Assembly (NCBI RefSeq): GCF_002979775.1
Contig: NZ_PCPR01000020.1
Coordinates: 1 to 64,000, forward strand
Origin: Arthrobacter sp. MYb23
Lineage (GTDB): Bacteria > Actinomycetota > Actinomycetes > Actinomycetales > Micrococcaceae
Direction of reading: 5' to 3'
DNA: 64,000 nucleotides
Of the stretch, positions 2,903-14,480 are shown piece by piece. Numbering within the stretch: the first letter of the stretch is position 1; each line of letters starts with the position of its first letter. The notes beneath the pieces were generated by a model. The model saw only the letters and a list, made by a program, of their open reading frames with translations, made no database searches and had not been told where the DNA came from. A program made the translations under genes and the position numbers.

Positions 2903-5900
2903 GTGAACACATTTGATGGGGGACTCGGGCGCGCGGCGATGCCTGAGGGATTATATGAACTGCTGCACACCTCGAACATCGAATCCAAGCTCTCGTTGGT
3001 GCCGGAACTCGCCGCAGTAGTCAGCGAAATCGACCAGGCAGACACCCCCGACGTACTTTCCCGTCACATAGCTGAGGTCGTAAAGGATGCACTCACGGCT
3101 GCCAATCCGGAGGATCGTGTGGGCCTGGCCAACCGACTCTTGTCACAGATACAGGCCGATAACCAGGTCACGCCGGGTCCGCGTCAATTGCTCTCTCTGC
3201 ACAAGCCGGATGCCCTTAAACGACGCCGGCTCCGTCGCCCCACCACGAAGCTAAGCGAGTCAGCGCTGCTGACAAACGGCAAGGCCGATCCGAATCTCGC
3301 CGCTGAGCTCCGAACCGAGATTGAATCGGCCAATACCGTTGATCTGCTCTGCGCTTTCGTCCGTTGGACGGGCCTGAGGCTCCTTGAGCCTGCACTTGAA
3401 CAATTGAGCGAGCGCGGTGTGAAGTTCAGGGTCATCACAACCACGTACATGGGCGCCACTGAACGCCGGGCGATCGATGAGCTCGTCCGTCGATACGGTG
3501 CCGAAGTCAAGATCAGCTACGAAACCCAAGCCACTCGCCTTCACGCGAAAGCCTGGCTATTCAGACGCGAAACTAATTTTGACACGGCCTACGTGGGTAG
3601 TTCCAACCTGAGTCAGGCCGCCCTGTTGGACGGGTTGGAATGGAACGTTCGTCTGAGTTCAATCGCGACGCCGGAGTTGCTGAAGAAGTTTGAGGTCACT
3701 TTTGACAGCTATTGGGAGCAGAAGGCTTTCCAGCTCTACGACCCAGACCGTGACGGCGACAAGTTGGATGCGGCACTGGAACGGAACGGCGGGAAGCGAA
3801 CGTCGGCCCCAAGCGGAGTCACAGGACTCGAAGTTGTGCCGTTCTTGCACCAGGAAGAAATGCTCGAGGACCTTGAAGCTGAACGGTCCAAGGGATACAA
3901 CAAGAATCTTCTCGTGGCAGCGACGGGTACCGGCAAGACGGTGATAGCTGCGCTCGACTACAAGCGCCTCTGTGAGGCAGCTGGGAGGCCCCTGTCTCTG
4001 CTATTCGTTGCTCATCGGCAAGAGATCCTGAAGCAATCGATGAGCACGTATCGCAACGTCATGCAGAACGGTGCTTTTGGTGAGCTTTACGTCGGCGACC
4101 ATAAGCCCCAAGACTGGACACACGTCTTCGCCTCTGTACAGTCGCTGGCTTCGCTAGGGGTCCGGACTTTTAAGGCCGACCAATTCGACGTAGTCGTCAT
4201 CGACGAGTTCCATCACGCATTGGCTCCTACTTATCGCCAATTGCTCGACTATCTGGAACCCCAGCAGCTTCTCGGGCTCACTGCAACGCCGGAACGCGGC
4301 GACGGTGGGAACGTCGCTAAGGAGTTCTTCGACGGGCGGACAGCCAGCGAGCTCCGACTCTGGGATGCGCTGGACGCTGATCTCCTGGTGCCTTTTCACT
4401 ACTTCGGTGTCTCCGATGACGTTGATCTAAGCCAGCTCAATTGGAAGCGCAATGGCGGTTATGACCTCGCGGCACTGGACGACGTGTATACCGGCAACGA
4501 TGCTCGAGCGGCAAAGGTGATCCGCGAGCTTCGCGACAAGGTCATCGGCACCGAATACATGCGCGCGATCGGCTTCTGCGTCTCAGTTCGGCATGCTCAC
4601 TACATGGCGAAGGTCTTTAACGACGCCGGCATCGTCTCGGTTGCGGTCGACGGCGGCACCGACGAGAGCGCGCGTGCTGCCGCTTTGAACCAGCTGAAAA
4701 GCCGCGAAATCAACTGCATATTCGCAGTGGACATCTTCAACGAAGGTCTGGACATCCCCGAGGTGGATACCATCCTCATGCTGAGGCCAACGCAGAGCGC
4801 CACGATCTTCCTGCAGCAGCTGGGACGAGGTCTGCGCCGTGCCGACGACAAAGCTGTGCTCACGATCCTGGATTTCATCGGCCAACAGCGTCGTGAGTTT
4901 CGCTTCGATCTGCGCTATCGGGCACTTACAGGCTACGGCCGTAAGCAACTCGAGAAAGCCGTTGAGGACGAATTCCCATATCTTCCGTCCGGGTCACAAA
5001 TCATACTGGACCGCGTGGCGCAGAAGATTGTGCTGGAAAACATCAAAGCCCAGCTGCGATACAACCGGAGTCAATTGACCAACGACATCGCTTCGTACGG
5101 AAAAATCGAGCTGGCCGAGTACTTGAAGGAATCGGGTAACGATGTCAAGGCCATTTACCGCTCGACCAAGGACTCTTGGACCGGCTACCTTCGACAAGCT
5201 CAAATGATAGATGGCTTCTCCGGCCTCGAATCGGTTCTGAAGAACCGGCATCACGACCATTCTGACGTCGAGGAGAGGAAGCTCTTGGGCCGAATGGCCG
5301 CTCTCATCCACGTTGACGATCCCGAACGGGCCGAGGCGTATTCCATGCTTGTCTCCGCAGACGCGCCCCGCTACTCAGAGTTGGGTGCACGGGAGCAGAC
5401 GTTCGCGAGAATGCTCTTCTACACACTTTGGGACGACGGCGGCGGCTTCAAGAAGTACGACGACGGTTTGGATCACCTACGTGCCTACGGGTTCGTGTGC
5501 AGTGAGATCCGGCAAATCGTAAGCCTCGGAGTCGCATCATCGAAGCACGCTGGCAAAGGTCTCGGGGCGGGACTCCAACAAGTTCCGCTGTTATCGCACG
5601 CGACGTATCGCCGGGAGGAAGTTCTCGCGGCGCTTCAGTACGGCTCGCTGGAACTCGGAAAAAACGTAGAGCACCGAGAAGGCGTTGCTTGGTGCCCGGC
5701 GACGGCGACGGACGCATTCTTTGTGACGCTGAACAAAGATGACAAGAAGCACTCCGCGACCACGATGTATAAGGACTATGCCGTAAGCCCGGTGCTGTTC
5801 CACTGGGAGTCGCAGAACGCGACATCGCCGACTAGCCCAACGGGCAAGCGCTATCTGGACCGGCGCGCTCATGGTTCGCGGATCATCCTATTTACACGTG

Positions 5901-6061
5901 ACACCGCAGACGATGAGACCGGCCTTACGGTTCCTTTTACGTGTCTCGGCCAAGTGGACATCGTAAAGTACTCGGGCACGAAACCGATTGCTATTACGTG
6001 GAAGCTGCATCGTCCAATGCCAGCAGATGTATTCGCGACTGCACGGTCTGTGGCCCAGTAG
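2903..6061 (+). CDS. PLD-like nuclease / DEAD-DEAH helicase / DUF3427 protein
   Basis: Large SF2 helicase-nuclease, 1052 aa. A phospholipase-D-type nuclease domain lies at ~125-270, with HAKAWLF (214-220) and GSSN (232-235) forming one HxK...N catalytic half. The SF2 helicase follows: Walker A ATGTGKT (340-346), DEFHHA (434-439) as the DEAH-like box, LTATPER (459-465) as motif III and QQLGRGLRR (638-646) as motif VI. The last ~350 residues match the position of DUF3427 in this known architecture. Such proteins are often found in defence islands; the biochemical role is not settled. Start is GTG at 2903, with an in-frame ATG at 2939 as alternative; neither has a strong ribosome site. It sits 200 nt behind the DUF262 gene on the same strand and shares its lower-GC look, so the two probably arrived together. 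Confidence 0.9.
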   Translation: MNTFDGGLGRAAMPEGLYELLHTSNIESKLSLVPELAAVVSEIDQADTPDVLSRHIAEVVKDALTAANPEDRVGLANRLLSQIQADNQVTPGPRQLLSLHKPDALKRRRLRRPTTKLSESALLTNGKADPNLAAELRTEIESANTVDLLCAFVRWTGLRLLEPALEQLSERGVKFRVITTTYMGATERRAIDELVRRYGAEVKISYETQATRLHAKAWLFRRETNFDTAYVGSSNLSQAALLDGLEWNVRLSSIATPELLKKFEVTFDSYWEQKAFQLYDPDRDGDKLDAALERNGGKRTSAPSGVTGLEVVPFLHQEEMLEDLEAERSKGYNKNLLVAATGTGKTVIAALDYKRLCEAAGRPLSLLFVAHRQEILKQSMSTYRNVMQNGAFGELYVGDHKPQDWTHVFASVQSLASLGVRTFKADQFDVVVIDEFHHALAPTYRQLLDYLEPQQLLGLTATPERGDGGNVAKEFFDGRTASELRLWDALDADLLVPFHYFGVSDDVDLSQLNWKRNGGYDLAALDDVYTGNDARAAKVIRELRDKVIGTEYMRAIGFCVSVRHAHYMAKVFNDAGIVSVAVDGGTDESARAAALNQLKSREINCIFAVDIFNEGLDIPEVDTILMLRPTQSATIFLQQLGRGLRRADDKAVLTILDFIGQQRREFRFDLRYRALTGYGRKQLEKAVEDEFPYLPSGSQIILDRVAQKIVLENIKAQLRYNRSQLTNDIASYGKIELAEYLKESGNDVKAIYRSTKDSWTGYLRQAQMIDGFSGLESVLKNRHHDHSDVEERKLLGRMAALIHVDDPERAEAYSMLVSADAPRYSELGAREQTFARMLFYTLWDDGGGFKKYDDGLDHLRAYGFVCSEIRQIVSLGVASSKHAGKGLGAGLQQVPLLSHATYRREEVLAALQYGSLELGKNVEHREGVAWCPATATDAFFVTLNKDDKKHSATTMYKDYAVSPVLFHWESQNATSPTSPTGKRYLDRRAHGSRIILFTRDTADDETGLTVPFTCLGQVDIVKYSGTKPIAITWKLHRPMPADVFATARSVAQ

Positions 6062-8596: not shown

Positions 8597-8612
8597 TCTT
8601 CGGATAACTTAG

Positions 8613-8647
8613 AAGCAGGGCCGGTCACTGACCGGCCCTGCTTTTTT
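8613..8647 (+). terminator. Intrinsic terminator of cspA
   Basis: AAGCAGGGCCGGT pairs perfectly with ACCGGCCCTGCTT over a 5-nt loop, followed by a T-run (8642-8647). It begins 16 nt after the cspA stop. Confidence 0.93.
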
Positions 8648-8666
8648 GTCTGCCTAAGCATAGAAA

Positions 8667-8702
8667 ATATGTTCTATCACCAGCTGTGACTATAGAACAT
8701 AT
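8667..8702. promoter_or_regulatory. Perfect 11-bp inverted repeat upstream of the LuxR gene
   Basis: ATATGTTCTAT (8667-8677) and ATAGAACATAT (8692-8702) are exact reverse complements separated by 14 nt, in unusually AT-rich sequence for this genome. With no T-run it reads as an operator rather than a terminator. The cognate protein is unknown. Confidence 0.5.
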
Positions 8703-8711
8703 ATCCACATA

Positions 8712-8734
8712 GGAAATTACACCCATGTAATTCC
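8712..8734. promoter_or_regulatory. Second inverted repeat upstream of the LuxR gene
   Basis: AATTACA and TGTAATT are separated by CCCA and extended by GGA/CC with a one-base bulge. It starts 10 nt after the first inverted repeat, so the two may form one regulatory block in the 345-bp gap between cspA and the LuxR gene. Confidence 0.4.
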
Positions 8735-8822
8735 CTCCCAGCACTCCGTAGCGTGGAACTTAATCCACCCGCCGAGCTGAGGAAGCACCCCAATGGATCC
8801 GGTAACTTCTAAACGTCATTGC

Positions 8823-8913
8823 CACCTAGACGAGTCCTCCGAGCACCTAATTTGGCCCAAATCACCACCTAGAGTGCCCCCAAACTGTCTGTGCAAGGCC
8901 GTTTTGCCACCTA
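8823..8913 (+). promoter_or_regulatory. Phased CACCTA array 1 and promoter of the STAND/LuxR gene
   Basis: CACCTA occurs at 8823, 8844, 8866 and 8908: steps of 21, 22 and 42 bp, i.e. integral double helical turns with one position skipped. The flanks are also similar (mostly CCACCTAG). The last box occupies the -35 position: 17 bp later comes TAGCCT (8931-8936), then 5 nt and the GTG at 8942. The same layout recurs on the minus strand at 13129-13038. Inference: operator array for the adjacent regulator, acting on its own leaderless promoter. Confidence 0.65.
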
Positions 8914-8941
8914 GTCCCGTTTTCAAGATCTAGCCTCCGAA

Positions 8942-11545
8942 GTGAGCCGCATGTCGGGCATCCACAAAAACAGAAGGCTAGGTCGCGTGTTCGATTCAGA
9001 GGTTCAACGAATCCTGGACTTTGTTGCACGCGGCATCGGAGTAAGGGTTGTCGGCTCGCCGGGTAGCGGTAAAACGACGGTCTTACGCAGCGTCATAGGC
9101 AACTTGGAGAAGTCCGGAGTCTCTGTGCACTTCATCAGTGGCCTGCGCACGCATAGAACCATTCCGTACGCGGCCATCAAAGGGCTTGGGCTGGATGTGA
9201 GGCCGGGCCGCAACGGGGTGCTCGACATCGCTGACGTGTTCTCAAGCCAATTGGCCAAGGCCGGGAAAAACTTGGTGGTAGTTGACGATCTTCACCTAGT
9301 GGACAGCGAATCCCTGGCTGTCCTGGAAGCTGTAAGGCGGAGATCGGATTGTCCGATGGTGGCTACGGCCCCCGAAACCTGGTCTTTCTCCAGAGGTCAG
9401 TTGGCCGTCCTTAACAACGGCCGGGAGGCGCATCTGCAACTGGATCCGCTCCACTATGAGCAGGTCCACTTCCTCATCGCACAGGTTCTTGGTGCCCCGG
9501 CGGACGCCGACACAACTGCACGCATCCTCACCAAATCCGCAGGCAACCCGCGCCTCATAGTACGGATCGCAGAGACAGCCTCCCTGAGCAATCTTCTGGT
9601 CATGAAGGACACACAATGGTCCATGTCGGCCGAAAGCCTATGGAACGAGCACCTGCGCGGCACAGTCGAGGCGCTCCTGGCTGAACTGAGCCCTGACGAG
9701 TTCACAGCTCTACATATGATGGCGATTCTGGGTACAGCACGGGTCGACGTACTTCATAAGGTCATTCACGCGGACGCCCTGGAAGGCCTGGAACGCAGGG
9801 GTTTCCTGTCCGTACTGGCAGATCAACACAATGGCACGATTGCTGCCATCAGCCCGCCGGTCATCGCTGACTACTTCCGCGGGAGCAAGAATCTTCGGGA
9901 CCGTAAGTTGCTCCGCAGCAAGATAGCGGGCGTCCTTGAGGCCGCTCCACACGAGGTCCCGGAAGAGAGGACGACGTCGGACGGCCTCTCGCGAGTGCTT
10001 TCATCACTCCGACTTGAGAAGGGTGACGACGACGCCATTACCTCCAGGCAAATCCACGAGCAAAGTACGGAGCGGGAACGCATCCGCTTTGAACGCTGGC
10101 AGGCTAACAAATCAGAGGCAAACGCCGCGGCATTCCTTCGCATCTACTGGGGCGCGCCCCTGAACGTTGAGCGTGCAAGGCGTGTCTGCTCCGAAACAAC
10201 AGACTTCGACGCCGATCCCAAAGACCTCCTGTTTGTCACCGTCACCGAGGCCATGCTTGCCATACACACCGGACGCGGCACGAGCGCGGCCGTCGACATC
10301 CTCCAAAAGTTCGGTGGGGACAATCCGCATTTGCTGGCGGAAGTGGAGAATGCCATCTTGTTCCTCAAGGCGTCCCACGGCAGGGTTCCACTGGACACCA
10401 GCCCGGTGCCAGGAGCTATTGAAAACCGTATGACGGGAATGGGGAGCTTGGTCCATGGGCTGTTGGAGCTTTACCGCTTCAACCCTGCAGCAGCACTGGA
10501 AGCTGTTGATGGCCCAGGTGACGACGACGCCTTCCCACATCTCCGCCCTTTCATCCGCAGTTTCGCATTGTTTGCGGCGGGCCGGGTGGAGGAGTCCTTG
10601 GTTCTTGCCTTGGACTGGCGAGCCGAAGCGCGAAAGAGTCTGGACCAGTTCGGTGTGATCACCAGCAGCTATGTGGCCGCGCATGGCCTGCTCTACGGCG
10701 GACACTTCGAAGAAGCGGAGTACCTCATGAGCAGCGTTTTTGCGATGGGTCGCCCGGGCTTCGTAGTGGACTCGCTCTACGACGCAATGCTCAGGCTCGC
10801 AGGACTCAGACACGCAACAACGGCCATACTGCCTGCGCTTTCCATAGCCGCCCAGGCGCGAACGGAAGTGGCGGATGTTGGGCCACTTCCCGGCATCGGC
10901 AAGGGAGCTTACGAGCTCATAGTCCACAACAACACTCAACCGTCGACGTTCGACCGTAAAGCCACCAAGCTCATCAGGCGGCAGCTGAAGAGCGGCTACG
11001 TCCTCGAAGCCATGATGACTGCGCTGCTTTGTACTTGCCTTTGCCCGGGCCGCCCGGTTCTGGACCTATTGCAGAAAATCCTCCGCGATAGTGGCCTTGA
11101 CGTCCATGATCAGCTCCTTGCCATAGCCTCGGCGGTGGTGGAGGGGGACCATAAGCTGCTTGGGCTTCTGCTCAAACACTACGAGCCTGACATCGACACA
11201 TATCAGGTTGGAATGCTGCTCCGGGGAGCTCTCAAACGTCACGTGATCGAAGGCGATGCCACGGCCGCTGACGCCATGGCACAGGCGTCCTCTGTCTTTG
11301 CTGTCCGGTTCCCGTCAGTAAACGAGCAGCTCTCCTTCAATTCGTTCAGGACCACACCGCTGACCGAACGGGAGATCGAGGTAGCCATCTTGGCCGGACA
11401 CCTCACCAATGTGGAGATCGGGGAACAGCTGGGGATCAGTGCCAGGACGGTGGAGAACCACATCTCCAACGCCTTGCGGAAGTCGGGTGCAACGTCCCGC
11501 AATAGTCTCTTCATGCTCGTGGGGAATTCACTTCCGCCGCGCTGA
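8942..11545 (+). CDS. STAND ATPase / LuxR-family transcriptional regulator
   Basis: An 867-aa LAL-type (MalT-like) regulator. The N-terminal NTPase domain has Walker A GSPGSGKT (38-45) and Walker B VVVDDLH (112-118). A long helical middle region (~370-790) could be TPR-like and sense a ligand or partner. The C-terminus (805-862) is a LuxR/GerE helix-turn-helix, beginning TPLTEREIEV and containing VEIGEQLGISARTVENH. Family members hydrolyse or exchange ATP, multimerise and activate transcription. The start is GTG 8942 (ATG 8951 is in frame) with TAGCCT 5 nt upstream and no ribosome site, so it is probably leaderless. The phased box array upstream suggests autoregulation. Confidence 0.92.
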   Translation: MSRMSGIHKNRRLGRVFDSEVQRILDFVARGIGVRVVGSPGSGKTTVLRSVIGNLEKSGVSVHFISGLRTHRTIPYAAIKGLGLDVRPGRNGVLDIADVFSSQLAKAGKNLVVVDDLHLVDSESLAVLEAVRRRSDCPMVATAPETWSFSRGQLAVLNNGREAHLQLDPLHYEQVHFLIAQVLGAPADADTTARILTKSAGNPRLIVRIAETASLSNLLVMKDTQWSMSAESLWNEHLRGTVEALLAELSPDEFTALHMMAILGTARVDVLHKVIHADALEGLERRGFLSVLADQHNGTIAAISPPVIADYFRGSKNLRDRKLLRSKIAGVLEAAPHEVPEERTTSDGLSRVLSSLRLEKGDDDAITSRQIHEQSTERERIRFERWQANKSEANAAAFLRIYWGAPLNVERARRVCSETTDFDADPKDLLFVTVTEAMLAIHTGRGTSAAVDILQKFGGDNPHLLAEVENAILFLKASHGRVPLDTSPVPGAIENRMTGMGSLVHGLLELYRFNPAAALEAVDGPGDDDAFPHLRPFIRSFALFAAGRVEESLVLALDWRAEARKSLDQFGVITSSYVAAHGLLYGGHFEEAEYLMSSVFAMGRPGFVVDSLYDAMLRLAGLRHATTAILPALSIAAQARTEVADVGPLPGIGKGAYELIVHNNTQPSTFDRKATKLIRRQLKSGYVLEAMMTALLCTCLCPGRPVLDLLQKILRDSGLDVHDQLLAIASAVVEGDHKLLGLLLKHYEPDIDTYQVGMLLRGALKRHVIEGDATAADAMAQASSVFAVRFPSVNEQLSFNSFRTTPLTEREIEVAILAGHLTNVEIGEQLGISARTVENHISNALRKSGATSRNSLFMLVGNSLPPR

Positions 11546-11627
11546 GCCGGGATAGGCTGGATCCACCTCAAACCACCGGTGATTAGCGTTCCCAGCTACG
11601 CCCGGCTTCCCAGTGCGAAGGGTTTTA

Positions 11628-12890
11628 GTGAGCAACTCTCCGGCCTTGGCCCGCCGACTAGGCACGTTCGACGCCTCGCTGATCGGGCTAGGGTCCATGA
11701 TCGGCGCAGGTGTTTTCGCGGCGTTCACCCCGGCCGCTGCAGCGGCAGGATCAGGGCTACTCATCGGTTTGGTGGTGGCTGCCTTCGTAGCCTTCTGCAA
11801 CGCCACATCATCGGCCCAGCTCGCTGCTGCCTATCCAACCTCCGGCGGTACCTATATTTACGGCCGCGAACGGCTCGGCCCCTGGTCTGGGTTTTTGGCC
11901 GGATGGGGCTTCGTCATCGGCAAGACGGCGAGCGCCGCTGCGATGGCAATGACCTTCGCCGCCTATGCCGCACCGCTAGGGTGGGAGCGCCCGGTGGCGA
12001 TTGCCGCCGTCGTGGTTTTGACTGCGGTGAACTATCACGGGGTGACGCGGACAGCCGGGCTGACGCGCGTGCTGGTGATAGCGGTGCTGGCTGCTCTAAC
12101 GATTGCAATCGCTGCGGTGTGGGGTGGCTCAGGTCCTGACTTTGGCAGCTTTGTGGGCGACGGACTGGTGGCCAGCGGCTGGTACGGGATTCTGCAATCG
12201 GCGGGGCTGCTGTTCTTCGCGTTCGCCGGGTACGCAAGGATTGCGACGATGGGCGAAGAAGTTTGCGAACCCAAGCGCACCATTCCACAGGCGATCAGCA
12301 TTGCCCTGGGTATCACCATCATCATCTACGCCGTCATCGCGGTTACCTTGCTCGCTGCCCTCGGCCCGGATGGAGTGGCTGCCACGCCCACGCCGCTGGC
12401 CGATGCTGTGAATGCCGGCGCGTTGGCTTGGGCTGCGCCGGTAGTACGCGTCGGTGCTGCCGTGGCGTCGCTGGGCGCGCTGTTGGCTCTCATCGCAGGA
12501 CTCGGAAGGACGAGCCTGGCCATGGCCCGGGAACACGACCTGCCCCATTGGCTCTCCGCAGTGCACCCTCGGTACAAGGTCCCGCACCGTGCCGAGATCG
12601 CGCTGGCCGCGGTGATCTGCGTGATCATTGCGGTGGCCGATCTTCGCGGGGCAATCGGCTTTTCGTCATTCGGAGTTCTGCTCTACTACTTGGTAGCCAA
12701 CGTCGCTGCCTACACTCAGCCAGGGGAAGACCGGCGGTATCCGAAGTTCCTGCAGGTGGCGGGCGCTGTTGCCTGCGTGGTTCTCGTTGCCACGCTGCCG
12801 CCGATATCCGCTGGCGTGGGTGTGCTGATGTTTGCGGTCGGGATTGTCTATCGCTTGGTGCGTTTGCGGCTTAGCAGTCCGGCCCGCTGA
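11628..12890 (+). CDS. APC-family amino acid permease
   Basis: Integral membrane transporter of the amino acid-polyamine-organocation superfamily, about 12 hydrophobic segments in 420 aa. The N-terminus carries the family signature GLGSMIGAGVFAA in TM1, and the next region YPTSGGTYIYGRERLGPWSGFLAGW is typical of APC TM2-3. It likely imports an amino acid or amine with protons; substrate unknown. Two in-frame GTGs are possible: 11613, and 11628, which has AAGG six nt upstream and is chosen. It follows the LuxR gene by 82 nt on the same strand and could be co-transcribed with it. Confidence 0.85.
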   Translation: MSNSPALARRLGTFDASLIGLGSMIGAGVFAAFTPAAAAAGSGLLIGLVVAAFVAFCNATSSAQLAAAYPTSGGTYIYGRERLGPWSGFLAGWGFVIGKTASAAAMAMTFAAYAAPLGWERPVAIAAVVVLTAVNYHGVTRTAGLTRVLVIAVLAALTIAIAAVWGGSGPDFGSFVGDGLVASGWYGILQSAGLLFFAFAGYARIATMGEEVCEPKRTIPQAISIALGITIIIYAVIAVTLLAALGPDGVAATPTPLADAVNAGALAWAAPVVRVGAAVASLGALLALIAGLGRTSLAMAREHDLPHWLSAVHPRYKVPHRAEIALAAVICVIIAVADLRGAIGFSSFGVLLYYLVANVAAYTQPGEDRRYPKFLQVAGAVACVVLVATLPPISAGVGVLMFAVGIVYRLVRLRLSSPAR

Positions 12891-12901
12891 CGTTCCGGCT
12901 G

Positions 12902-12940
12902 GGCACGGCCCCACCAGGGGGTGGTAGATGGAGCCGTGCC
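12902..12940. terminator. GC-rich hairpin after the APC permease
   Basis: GGCACGGC (12902-12909) pairs with GCCGTGCC (12933-12940), with a nested CCACC/GGTGG stem inside. There is no T-run. It could end the permease transcript on the plus strand and also the predicted short minus-strand transcript from 13007. Confidence 0.5.
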
Positions 12941-12950
12941 GTCATGCCTC

Positions 12951-13007
12951 CTACGCCAGGGCGGGTGGGACTCCCGCCGGACACCGGGATATCCGCCCCG
13001 AAGGCAC
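12951..13007 (-). CDS. Candidate leaderless 18-codon ORF / start of a short transcript
   Basis: Reading the minus strand from phased array 2, a CACCTA box (13043-13038), 18 bp, TAGTCT (13019-13014) and 6 nt lead to a GTG at 13007. The frame encodes MPSGRISRCPAGVPPALA and stops with TAG at 12953-12951. The stop overlaps GGAGG, which is followed after one nt by an ATG (12945) opening a 24-codon frame across the hairpin; that spacing is too short for confident initiation. The product may be a roughly 105-nt small RNA rather than a peptide. Called only because the promoter layout copies that of the LuxR gene. Confidence 0.35.
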   Translation of the reverse strand: MPSGRISRCPAGVPPALA

Positions 13008-13037
13008 AAGAAGAGACTATGGGTGGTTTCCGGGCTC

Positions 13038-13129
13038 TAGGTGTTCGGAGAGGGCGAATAGGTACCGATGTGGCGCGAATTAGGGGTGGTGGGGACCAAA
13101 AATAGGTGCTGGACGAGGGCGCCTAGGTG
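13038..13129 (-). promoter_or_regulatory. Phased CACCTA array 2 (TAGGTG on the plus strand)
   Basis: On the plus strand TAGGTG, TAGGTA, TAGGGG, TAGGTG and TAGGTG start at 13038, 13059, 13081, 13103 and 13124: steps of 21, 22, 22 and 21 bp. These are the reverse complement of the boxes of array 1. Flanks agree too: TAGGTGTTCGGA here and TAGGTGCTCGGA in box 2 of array 1. A sixth weak copy may lie at 13018. The array lies in the 318-bp gap between the permease and the pRiA4b-type gene and points to a minus-strand promoter. Confidence 0.6.
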
Positions 13130-13208
13130 TTGGACCGCCGTCGAGCGCTCGCGCTAGCAGCCCGACCCAAGGACACATGACGCGAAACCACTCCACGGCA
13201 CTGGCAGA

Positions 13209-14480
13209 ATGGCGGATATGGAATCACCCGCCACCGTTCCCGCCGTCGAACTGCGCATTTCCATCAGTGAAACGGAGCCGCTGATCTGGAGGCAACTCGT
13301 TCTCCCCGAAACCGCCACAGTCGCAGAGCTGCACGAAGCCATCCAGTGCGCCTTCGGGTGGAAGAACTCGCATTTGTACGCCGTCGCCGGCCAAGACAAG
13401 TCTGGCAAGCAGCGCATCTTCATGGACGTCGACGGCGGCGATGGTCCCGAGGGTGCCGAAAGCCCAGCTGCCGTGCGGCTGCTGGAGCTGTTCGACGTTC
13501 AGACGCCCGGTCTTTCAGACCTCCTTTACGAGTACGACTTCGGTGACAGCTGGACGCACGAGATCGAGGTTGTGGGTCCCGCTGAGCTACATGAGAACAC
13601 CATCGCCTGCCTCGACGGAGCGATGAGGGGACCCATTGAGGATTCCGGGGGAGTCGGTGGGTACGCCAACGTGGTGGCTGTGGTGAGCAACCGCAAGCAC
13701 CCTGAACACAAGGAAGCTGTTGAATGGCTTGAATTTGTGACGCAGGAACACGTCTCCAAGTTCGACCCGGCCGCCTTTGATCTAGTGGCAATAAACGGGC
13801 AGCTCCGCAGTTTGGCGCAGCGATTCTGGCCAGGTGAGGTGACGGCTGCGGACTACGAAGACGTCCTGGGTCCGATCCTGTGGTTCCTTACGGAGGCCCA
13901 GCTGGACGGCCTACCTTTGACCTCTGCCGGGTACTTGAAGCCCGCCTTCGTGAAGCGCGCCATGACCGAACTTGGCTGGGACGATGAATGGATCTCGGCT
14001 GGACGGGTGGAGGTGAGCACGCCGCCAATCCTGAATCTTCGGGAACAGTTGCAGGAGTGGAAGCTTTTGCGGAAGCTCAAGGACAGGCTGCTCTTGACGC
14101 CCAGAGGACGGAAACTGGCCGGGGACCCCGAAGCCCTGTGGGATTTCCTGGCAAGTGAGTTGGCGAATCCAGACAGCGACGCGGAGCGCATGGCAACGCC
14201 GCTGTTCATCCATTGGGAGCTAACCGGGGACGAGCCACCCTACGGGCTTAGGGATCTGGTGATCCAGGCTGCGCTTCACCAAGGTGGGTTGAGAACCAGA
14301 ACGGGCGGTGAGATTCCCCTGTCATGGGCGAGTGACCTCTACTACGAGGTCACTGGGAGCCTGCACCGGCTGGAGTTGTGGGAGAGGGCCAGCTGGACTC
14401 GACACGACGAGAAATTGTCCGACGCCGGCATCAAGTTTCTGCTGGACGTCCAGAGCCGCTGGGACGGCCGCAGCGTCTGA
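13209..14480 (+). CDS. Plasmid pRiA4b ORF-3 family protein
   Basis: Cytoplasmic 423-aa protein. Residues ~15-190 match the pRiA4b ORF-3-like family, with the family motifs PLIWRQLVLPETATVAELHEAIQCAFGW and LLYEYDFGDSWTHEIEV followed by CLDGAMRGPIEDSGGVGGY. The C-terminal ~220 residues are an uncharacterised extension often seen in actinobacterial members. Biochemical function is unknown. Starts at ATG 13209; a second ATG at 13218 is possible. It is convergent with the Excalibur gene and lies downstream of phased array 2, which however faces away from it. Confidence 0.85.
   Translation: MADMESPATVPAVELRISISETEPLIWRQLVLPETATVAELHEAIQCAFGWKNSHLYAVAGQDKSGKQRIFMDVDGGDGPEGAESPAAVRLLELFDVQTPGLSDLLYEYDFGDSWTHEIEVVGPAELHENTIACLDGAMRGPIEDSGGVGGYANVVAVVSNRKHPEHKEAVEWLEFVTQEHVSKFDPAAFDLVAINGQLRSLAQRFWPGEVTAADYEDVLGPILWFLTEAQLDGLPLTSAGYLKPAFVKRAMTELGWDDEWISAGRVEVSTPPILNLREQLQEWKLLRKLKDRLLLTPRGRKLAGDPEALWDFLASELANPDSDAERMATPLFIHWELTGDEPPYGLRDLVIQAALHQGGLRTRTGGEIPLSWASDLYYEVTGSLHRLELWERASWTRHDEKLSDAGIKFLLDVQSRWDGRSV

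What the first reader, a model, noticed from the sequence alone, without database searches (positions are those of the whole stretch)
8823..13129. Two helically phased CACCTA arrays, each ending at a leaderless promoter, around a STAND/LuxR regulator
Seen directly: CACCTA at 8823, 8844, 8866, 8908 (steps 21, 22, 42) on plus; and on minus, boxes at 13129, 13108, 13086, 13064, 13043 (steps 21-22; the middle two boxes have one mismatch each). In both arrays the last box is 17-18 bp before a TAnnnT -10 (TAGCCT, TAGTCT), followed by 5-6 nt and GTG. Flanks agree as well (TAGGTGCTCGGA versus TAGGTGTTCGGA). Known: MalT, a STAND protein with a LuxR HTH, polymerises on direct repeats of short boxes. Inference: the product of 8942-11545 binds both arrays as a filament, activating itself and a short divergent transcript.
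Basis: partly seen in the sequence, partly recalled or inferred. Interest (0 to 1): 0.85.

Follow-up and report, generated by a model that had tools for sequence, protein, structure and literature searches.

The report
Master switch for bacterial weapon genes
A large ATP-binding regulator in soil Paenarthrobacter and relatives appears to read rows of evenly spaced six-letter DNA boxes in front of itself, a small structured RNA and several toxin, bacteriocin and secretion operons, and a natural change of one amino acid in its DNA-reading helix goes together with a change of the boxes throughout the genome.

Summary
In detail: both CACCTA arrays, their steps, TAGCCT/TAGTCT and the matching flanks are present, and 0 of 1500 simulated windows gave a three-box chain. 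They are part of something larger. (1) Array 1 is kept upstream of the regulator in 19 of 19 loci (four loci lack one box). Array 2 precedes not a gene but a conserved structured RNA of about 118 nt (19 of 19 loci; no Rfam hit in the searched stretch). (2) In 150 congeneric genomes the RNA model hits exactly the 20 with an orthologue of at least 67% identity; these have 4-15 CACCTA pairs each, the 116 genomes without any match to the regulator at most 2. (3) Elsewhere arrays precede Sdp-type, daptide, circular-bacteriocin, WXG100/toxin and exporter operons; some targets remain unknown. (4) Among 52-55% homologues an N/S difference in the GerE recognition helix tracks the box: three N-type genomes carry CACCTA arrays, nine S-type genomes carry CAC[GT][GT]AG arrays, also before orthologous operons. 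This double dissociation argues that the regulator itself reads the boxes. Most likely it is a MalT-like STAND activator of an antagonism regulon. Binding, filament formation, activation and inducer are untested.

The parts
8823..8913 (+). Array 1: CACCTA at 8823-8828, 8844-8849, 8866-8871, 8908-8913
   Evidence: all four boxes exact in 14 of 16 loci, box 2 missing in L023 and L026; in three further loci G149 has all four, G062 lacks box 1, G134 lacks box 2
8889..8899 (+). Conserved CTGTGCAAGGC between boxes 3 and 4, role unknown
   Evidence: Present in the 16 upstream regions printed
8931..8936 (+). -10-like TAGCCT, 17 nt after the last box
   Evidence: TAGCCT, TAACCT or TAGTCT in relatives
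8942..11545 (+). STAND ATPase / LuxR-HTH regulator (867 aa, P0001)
   Evidence: GerE PF00196 42.9 bits (cut-off 23.5), AAA_22 27.7 bits (cut-off 27)
11357..11515 (+). GerE/LuxR HTH, residues 806-858
   Evidence: best solved relative GerE 1fse, E 2.2e-5
11456..11458 (+). Codon of N839 in the recognition helix (TVENHISNA); S in homologues with CAC[GT][GT]AG boxes
13038..13129 (-). Array 2: CACCTA beginning at 13129, 13108, 13043, with one-mismatch boxes at 13086 and 13064
   Evidence: in 19 of 19 loci the RNA is preceded by at least two exact boxes in phase
13014..13019 (-). -10-like TAGTCT, 18 nt after the last box
12891..13008 (-). Conserved structured non-coding RNA, about 118 nt
   Evidence: 35 consensus pairs, 7 with compensatory changes; no Rfam match in 8600-13400

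Best explanation
The regulator (8942-11545) is a MalT-like STAND/LuxR activator of a scattered regulon of interbacterial-antagonism genes. In its active, presumably ATP-bound and self-associated form it binds direct repeats of a short box spaced by about whole helical turns (21-23, 33, 42-44, 64-65 bp), the promoter-proximal box taking the -35 place. It thereby drives its own gene, a structured RNA of about 118 nt, and operons for Sdp-type toxins, daptides, circular bacteriocins, WXG100 proteins with a polymorphic toxin, and MacB-type exporters. Residue N839 of the recognition helix goes with the box CACCTA, S with CAC[GT][GT]AG. Shown here by computation: array anatomy and conservation, RNA structure, co-occurrence, target families, residue-box co-variation. 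Inferred: direct binding, self-association on DNA, activation rather than repression, the inducer (unknown), antagonism as the biological role, and any role of the RNA.
For: Array conserved upstream of the regulator and of the RNA. RNA model hits 20 of 150 genus genomes, the same 20 that have an orthologue of at least 67% identity; 4 of 197 family genomes, the same 4 with an orthologue of at least 75%. CACCTA pairs: 191 in those 20 genus genomes (4-15 each), 22 in the 116 genomes without a match to the regulator. Residue-box co-variation: CT in 10 of 14 phased boxes upstream of three N-type homologues, 0 of 45 upstream of nine S-type; CACCTA pairs 17, 11, 8 in the N-type and 4 in all in the nine S-type genomes; CACKKAG pairs 10-20 in each of the nine S-type, 0-3 in seven N-type or orthologue-bearing genomes, 0-4 in six without regulator; orthologous promoters with exchanged boxes. 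Targets: Sdp, daptide, circular bacteriocin, WXG100, toxin and type VII parts; 13 of 20 further sites in six genomes precede relatives of these.
Against: No binding or expression data. The reversed-pattern control is 1-6 per genome in the 20 orthologue-bearing genomes (64 in all against 191) and equals the count in G260 and G262. The antagonism role is read from families: 5 of 20 sites have no recognised target and 2 look like chance; only 3 of 16 S-type loci examined gave a recognised target; several WXG100 arrays and one other lack a TAGNNT at 18 nt. G298 (46% identity, N-type, in-frame stop) has an array upstream but no exact CACCTA pair. At least five of nine S-type upstream regions hold an unphased single CACCTA nearer the gene. 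In the passages I saw daptides are reported as hemolysins; an antibacterial effect is not shown there. The N-to-S change in this group is probably one event, so its many genomes are not independent.
Confidence: 0.74

Rival explanations
1. The boxes are read by another DNA-binding protein or an alternative sigma factor inherited together with the regulator; the STAND protein is only one of its targets.
Against: The box switches with a recognition-helix residue of this very protein, genome-wide and reciprocally; the box, read as TAGGTG, fits the GerE consensus TRGGY (recalled), and GerE is the nearest solved HTH; several phased boxes are not expected of a -35 element.
Confidence: 0.12
2. The regulator reads the arrays but acts as a repressor that silences the toxin operons until a signal releases it.
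For: Toxin genes are often silenced; direction of control was not tested. The array at its own promoter also fits negative autoregulation.
Against: The last box lies upstream of the -10-like element at an activator-like distance at the regulator and RNA promoters; MalT and IniR, the nearest described kinds, are activators (passages).
Confidence: 0.1
3. The CACCTA arrays are spreading repeats of a mobile or structural element without regulatory meaning.
For: Several copies per genome.
Against: Box and spacing are conserved while the sequence between boxes differs from site to site; presence depends on the regulator; boxes change in step at orthologous promoters.
Confidence: 0.02

Closest known systems
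MalT of E. coli (STAND/LuxR, MalT boxes)
   Same: N-terminal ATPase, C-terminal LuxR HTH, direct repeats of short boxes near the promoter; MalT multimerises head to tail and binds MalT boxes cooperatively (PMC4381067, passages)
   Different: Not MalT: NCBIfam MalT model 15.8 bits against cut-off 537. Different box, many-box arrays at whole turns, different targets, a linked RNA
IniR of mycobacteria
   Same: Best NCBIfam match (50.7 bits), STAND-type LuxR regulator of an actinobacterium, forms multimers (PMC5760070, passages)
   Different: Far below the IniR cut-off of 750 bits; that paper describes control of iniBAC only; the terms 'binding site' and 'promoter sequence' did not occur in its main text
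TpdR of Rhodococcus jostii (LAL regulator)
   Same: Large ATP-binding LuxR regulator of an actinobacterium with direct repeats in its target promoter (PMC6099782, passages)
   Different: Two 15-bp repeats, one catabolic operon; no phased many-box array, no toxin targets in the passages seen
GerE of Bacillus (LuxR-type HTH)
   Same: Nearest solved structure by sequence; recognition helix TVRNHISNA against TVENHISNA; recalled consensus TRGGY fits the box
   Different: HTH only, no ATPase; described as binding two inverted 12-nt sequences (PMC6099782, passage)

Membership tests
STAND / large ATP-binding LuxR (LAL) regulators, broad sense | N-terminal P-loop ATPase | tested here: met
   AAA_22 27.7 bits, cut-off 27; GSPGSGKTT Walker A and VVVDD Walker B readable (motif names recalled)
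STAND / large ATP-binding LuxR (LAL) regulators, broad sense | C-terminal LuxR/GerE HTH | tested here: met
   GerE 42.9 bits, cut-off 23.5, residues 806-858
STAND / large ATP-binding LuxR (LAL) regulators, broad sense | Helical-repeat sensor between ATPase and HTH | tested here: inconclusive
   Model mostly helical between 345 and 790 but weak (mean pLDDT 58, pTM 0.38); best PDB match a STAND protein with TPR, 6mfv, E 1.1e-5 but TM 0.15/0.19
STAND / large ATP-binding LuxR (LAL) regulators, broad sense | Inducer- and ATP-dependent multimerisation | not testable with these tools
   Needs purified protein
MalT (equivalog) | Score over the curated MalT cut-off | tested here: not met
   15.8 against 537 bits
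IniR (equivalog) | Score over the curated IniR cut-off | tested here: not met
   50.7 against 750 bits
AbsR2 (equivalog) | Score over the curated AbsR2 cut-off | tested here: not met
   50.0 against 850 bits
Known RNA families (Rfam 15) | Match at 12891-13008 minus | tested here: not met
   No match with E up to 1 in 8600-13400
Sdp-type toxin operon (target at C9) | SdpA, SdpB and SdpC family proteins | tested here: inconclusive
   SdpA 108.1 (cut-off 53.1) and SdpB 198.7 (178.4) met; SdpC-like 75.3, below 99.2, E 5e-21
Daptide cluster (target in G062) | RRE protein, aminotransferase, dehydrogenase, methyltransferase, precursors | tested here: met
   All four enzymes and daptide_123 for two precursors over cut-off
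Circular bacteriocin (targets in G216, G335) | Bacteriocin_IId / uberolysin-type precursor | tested here: inconclusive
   Pfam PF09221 over cut-off in both (25.7 and 28.4, cut-off 23.6); NCBIfam TIGR03651 below cut-off (23.2 and 24.6, cut-off 30.7)

The most novel reading that the evidence does not exclude
A STAND/LuxR master regulator of interbacterial weaponry assembles as a filament on phased box arrays, and its DNA code was rewired regulon-wide around a single natural substitution (N839 to S) in the recognition helix, dozens of boxes changing in step. A co-induced structured RNA with an exposed ACCCC loop feeds back on the G-rich ribosome-binding sites of the same regulon.
Probability: 0.27. 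Interest if true: 0.92.

Novelty: new variant of a known kind. Interest (0 to 1): 0.84.

Why it matters
It ties one uncharacterised regulator to several unrelated kinds of toxin, bacteriocin and secretion operons in a soil genus, so one deletion could show when and why such bacteria attack neighbours, and the arrays offer a handle for finding new bacteriocins among their unknown targets. The N-type and S-type genomes are a natural experiment on how a whole regulon changes its DNA code, which becomes testable with one point mutation and two sets of promoters. Many-box arrays are also a good substrate for asking how STAND proteins assemble on DNA.

Tried and rejected
Rejected: a leaderless gene at 13007. 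A 53-aa minus-strand frame (12848-13009) exists, but single-base indels and covarying stems across 19 loci speak for an RNA. Rejected: dispersed repeats. Discounted: own-genome pair C27:38953, inside a called reading frame.

Led little further: CACGGAG pairs in another genus of the family (g7): 9 in four genomes with 41-43% homologues, 5 in seven genomes of that genus without, so only suggestive, although CACGGAG-like boxes in phase lie upstream of some of those homologues. No CACCTA array upstream of the own 40% paralogue. G-rich starts: GGGG upstream of 6 of 8 target starts against 24 of 169 background genes, Fisher P 3e-4, but noticed after the fact, hand-picked, and including two WXG100 paralogues; a lead only. 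The first regular expression for the RNA missed most loci and was redone; a second found 16 of 19 loci, the other three (L028, L086, L093) were placed by eye.

Caveats on counts: the RNA model was trained on 19 loci, three of them from positive genomes besides the window, and others probably the same strains as positives, so positives are not independent; negatives (193 of 197, 130 of 150) are, but these searches used stricter filters that lose weak matches. One search used 22 hand-chosen genomes of 150: all nine S-type, seven N-type or orthologue-bearing (recognition helix not read in G261, G274, G302), six without regulator. One search used all non-regulator, non-RNA CACCTA pairs that one search lists for six of the 20 orthologue-bearing genomes; the BLAST reference set came from array-adjacent genes, so it shows recurrence of targets, their function resting. 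One search's list of places was cut, its per-genome counts were not. Sums over genomes were made by hand from the tables.
Full report
OBSERVATION. The boxes, steps, -10-like hexamers and flanks are all present at the stated coordinates. Single CACCTA words are not rare in the window (18 against 11.66 expected; 8 of 100 shuffles as high), but phased chains are: two of three or more boxes, against none in 1500 first-order Markov simulations. The steps seen in the wider set (21-23, 33, 42-44, 64-65 bp) are close to whole turns of DNA.

WHAT FOLLOWS ARRAY 1. The gene 8942-11545 encodes an 867-aa protein with an N-terminal AAA/STAND-type ATPase and a C-terminal GerE/LuxR HTH. In 15 orthologous Paenarthrobacter/Arthrobacter loci plus the window, boxes 1, 3 and 4 are exact in 16 of 16 and box 2 in 14 of 16, in the same register. 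Of three further loci G149 has all four, G062 lacks box 1, G134 lacks box 2. CTGTGCAAGGC between boxes 3 and 4 is also kept in those 16.

WHAT FOLLOWS ARRAY 2. No conserved gene. On the minus strand from 13008 to 12891 lies an RNA found in 19 of 19 loci (16 by pattern, three placed by eye), each time behind at least two exact boxes in phase (in L020 two boxes 64 bp apart). In L018, L024 and L028 it lies 0.6-1.4 kb beyond the permease that it abuts elsewhere; in L026 my search recognised no permease. The consensus structure has 35 pairs; 98.3% of cells form standard pairs (37-54% when partners are slid by 1-3 columns); 7 pairs change on both sides (4 of 500 shuffles as high) and 0 of 500 shuffles reach the covariation score, a control that related sequences can pass without structure. 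Rfam has no match in 8600-13400. A covariance model hits 4 of 197 family genomes, the four with an orthologue of at least 75% identity, and 20 of 150 genus genomes, exactly the 20 with an orthologue of at least 67%.

ARRAYS ELSEWHERE IN THE OWN GENOME. CACCTAN{15,16}CACCTA has 14 matches against 2 for the reversed pattern, at 8 sites: the regulator, the RNA and six others. C9:78890 precedes a four-gene stretch with SdpC-like, SdpA and SdpB proteins. C30:7141 precedes a WXG100-like protein (26.6 bits, cut-off 27.3), two further small proteins, a 728-aa protein with a C-terminal nuclease domain and a YezG-like immunity protein. C37:19135 precedes a second WXG100-type start (MAIFDMGAET) near the contig end, beside EccD/YukD and FtsK/SpoIIIE genes of type VII secretion. 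C58:195827-195896 precedes an I36-type secreted protein, two further proteins and a MacB-type ABC exporter. C30:2858-2906 precedes a 149-aa secreted-looking protein with no NCBIfam or Pfam match. C27:38953 lies inside a reading frame and is discounted.

ARRAYS IN OTHER GENOMES. In G062 an array precedes a daptide cluster whose four enzymes pass their cut-offs; in G216 and G335 arrays precede circular-bacteriocin-like precursors (Pfam over, NCBIfam under cut-off). Of 20 further sites in six genomes, 13 precede relatives of these families: daptide 4 with all four enzymes and 2 with the methyltransferase only, Sdp 3 (one 3.8 kb away), I36/exporter 3, WXG100 1. Five have no recognised target, one (L193) lies inside a reading frame and one (L184) has no gene called nearby.

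PROMOTER FORM. At the regulator and RNA promoters the last box lies 17-18 nt before TAGNNT. In Sdp and I36 arrays that place holds TAGGTG, an inverted box, and a TAGNNT or TANNNT lies further down; in daptide arrays TAGTGT lies further down. Some arrays, among them two WXG100 arrays, have no such element at 18 nt. So the -10 assignment is firm only for some promoters.

CO-OCCURRENCE. In 197 family genomes the four with an orthologue have 14, 10, 4 and 9 CACCTA pairs; the other 193 have 60 in all. In 150 genus genomes the 20 with an orthologue have 191 (4-15 each; reversed-pattern control 64 in all, 1-6 each); the 116 with no match to the regulator have 22 (at most 2 each). Twelve genomes with 52-55% homologues vary: 17, 11 and 8 in G335, G283, G216, and 0-2 in nine. 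G298 (46%, with an in-frame stop) and G199 (41%) have none.

THE SPECIFICITY SWITCH. One residue accounts for this variation. In G335, G283 and G216 the recognition helix reads TVENH, as in all 16 orthologues aligned (N839 invariant); in the nine others it reads TVESH. Between G216 and G319 the printed HTH region differs otherwise only in four positions after the recognition helix, besides the tail. Upstream of the 12 homologues the arrays have the same spacing (21, 33, 22, 21; G283 has one box fewer), but the two central letters differ: CT in 10 of 14 phased boxes for N-type and 0 of 45 for S-type, which have TG, GT, GG or TT. Against this, at least five of the nine S-type regions hold an unphased single CACCTA nearer the gene. 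The prediction that S-type genomes should carry CAC[GT][GT]AG arrays genome-wide was tested: 10-20 pairs in each of nine S-type genomes (139 in all), 0-3 in seven N-type or orthologue-bearing genomes (9 in all), 0-4 in six without regulator (8 in all). Related promoters of a circular-bacteriocin, a daptide and an ABC-transporter operon carry CACCTAG in N-type and CAC[GT][GT]AG in S-type genomes at corresponding places (3 of 16 S-type loci examined gave a recognised target). A tree of 39 regulators nests the S-type clade (support 94/92) among N-type rows (joining branch 99/98), so in this group the change was probably N to S, once; the root is a midpoint. Homologues in another genus are also S-type and some have phased CACGGAG boxes upstream. 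Two 42-44% homologues have phased CACTCA boxes. The nearest solved HTH, GerE, has N at this place.

MECHANISM. Most likely a MalT-like activator: signal and ATP open the STAND module, the protein self-associates, HTH domains occupy boxes on one face of the DNA, and the last contacts RNA polymerase. The RNA has an invariant ACCCC in a loop and several target starts are G-rich (post hoc), so feedback on translation is possible but unproven.

KNOWN OR NEW. The protein belongs to STAND/LuxR (LAL) regulators in the broad sense but is far below the cut-offs for MalT, IniR and AbsR2. Searches of the held open-access library showed nothing on this system: searches (21 papers, 10 listed; none; 2; 4; 66, 8 listed), judged from listings only; most subscription papers are not held. 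I call it a new variant of a known kind: a known class of regulator with a new arrangement of sites, a new RNA, an unusual regulon and a natural change of code.

Noticed in passing
window 8889-8899: CTGTGCAAGGC between boxes 3 and 4 is kept in 16 loci although no CACCTA box lies there; possibly a site for another factor.
   Followed up: no
L024:5361-5446: A second four-box array with the same 21/22/42 steps lies about 520 bp upstream of the regulator's own array, before a similar start, as if the promoter had been duplicated.
   Followed up: no
G298:C9:36961-39510: A 46% homologue with N-type recognition helix and an in-frame TAG; phased CACCTA/CACTCA boxes lie upstream.
   Followed up: partly
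L128, L131: Upstream of 42-44% homologues phased CACTCA boxes end before TAGCGT, perhaps a third box type.
   Followed up: partly
L103:1441-1680 (G192 C9, near 17586): In another genus a CACGGAG pair just downstream of the homologous regulator is followed 18 nt later by TAGCCT and G-rich DNA, perhaps an analogous RNA.
   Followed up: no
G217:C1:3436679 and 3697921: The closest relative (97% regulator identity) has the same WXG100-type box pair twice, about 260 kb apart.
   Followed up: no
window 2903-6061: Large PLD/helicase/DUF3427 protein, restriction- or defence-like by its domains.
   Followed up: no
starts of array-linked genes, e.g. L031:7379, L033 (MAIFDMGAET), L030:9040: Several array-linked genes have GGGG in the ribosome-binding region (6 of 8 against 24 of 169 background, post hoc), complementary to the ACCCC loop of the RNA.
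   Followed up: partly
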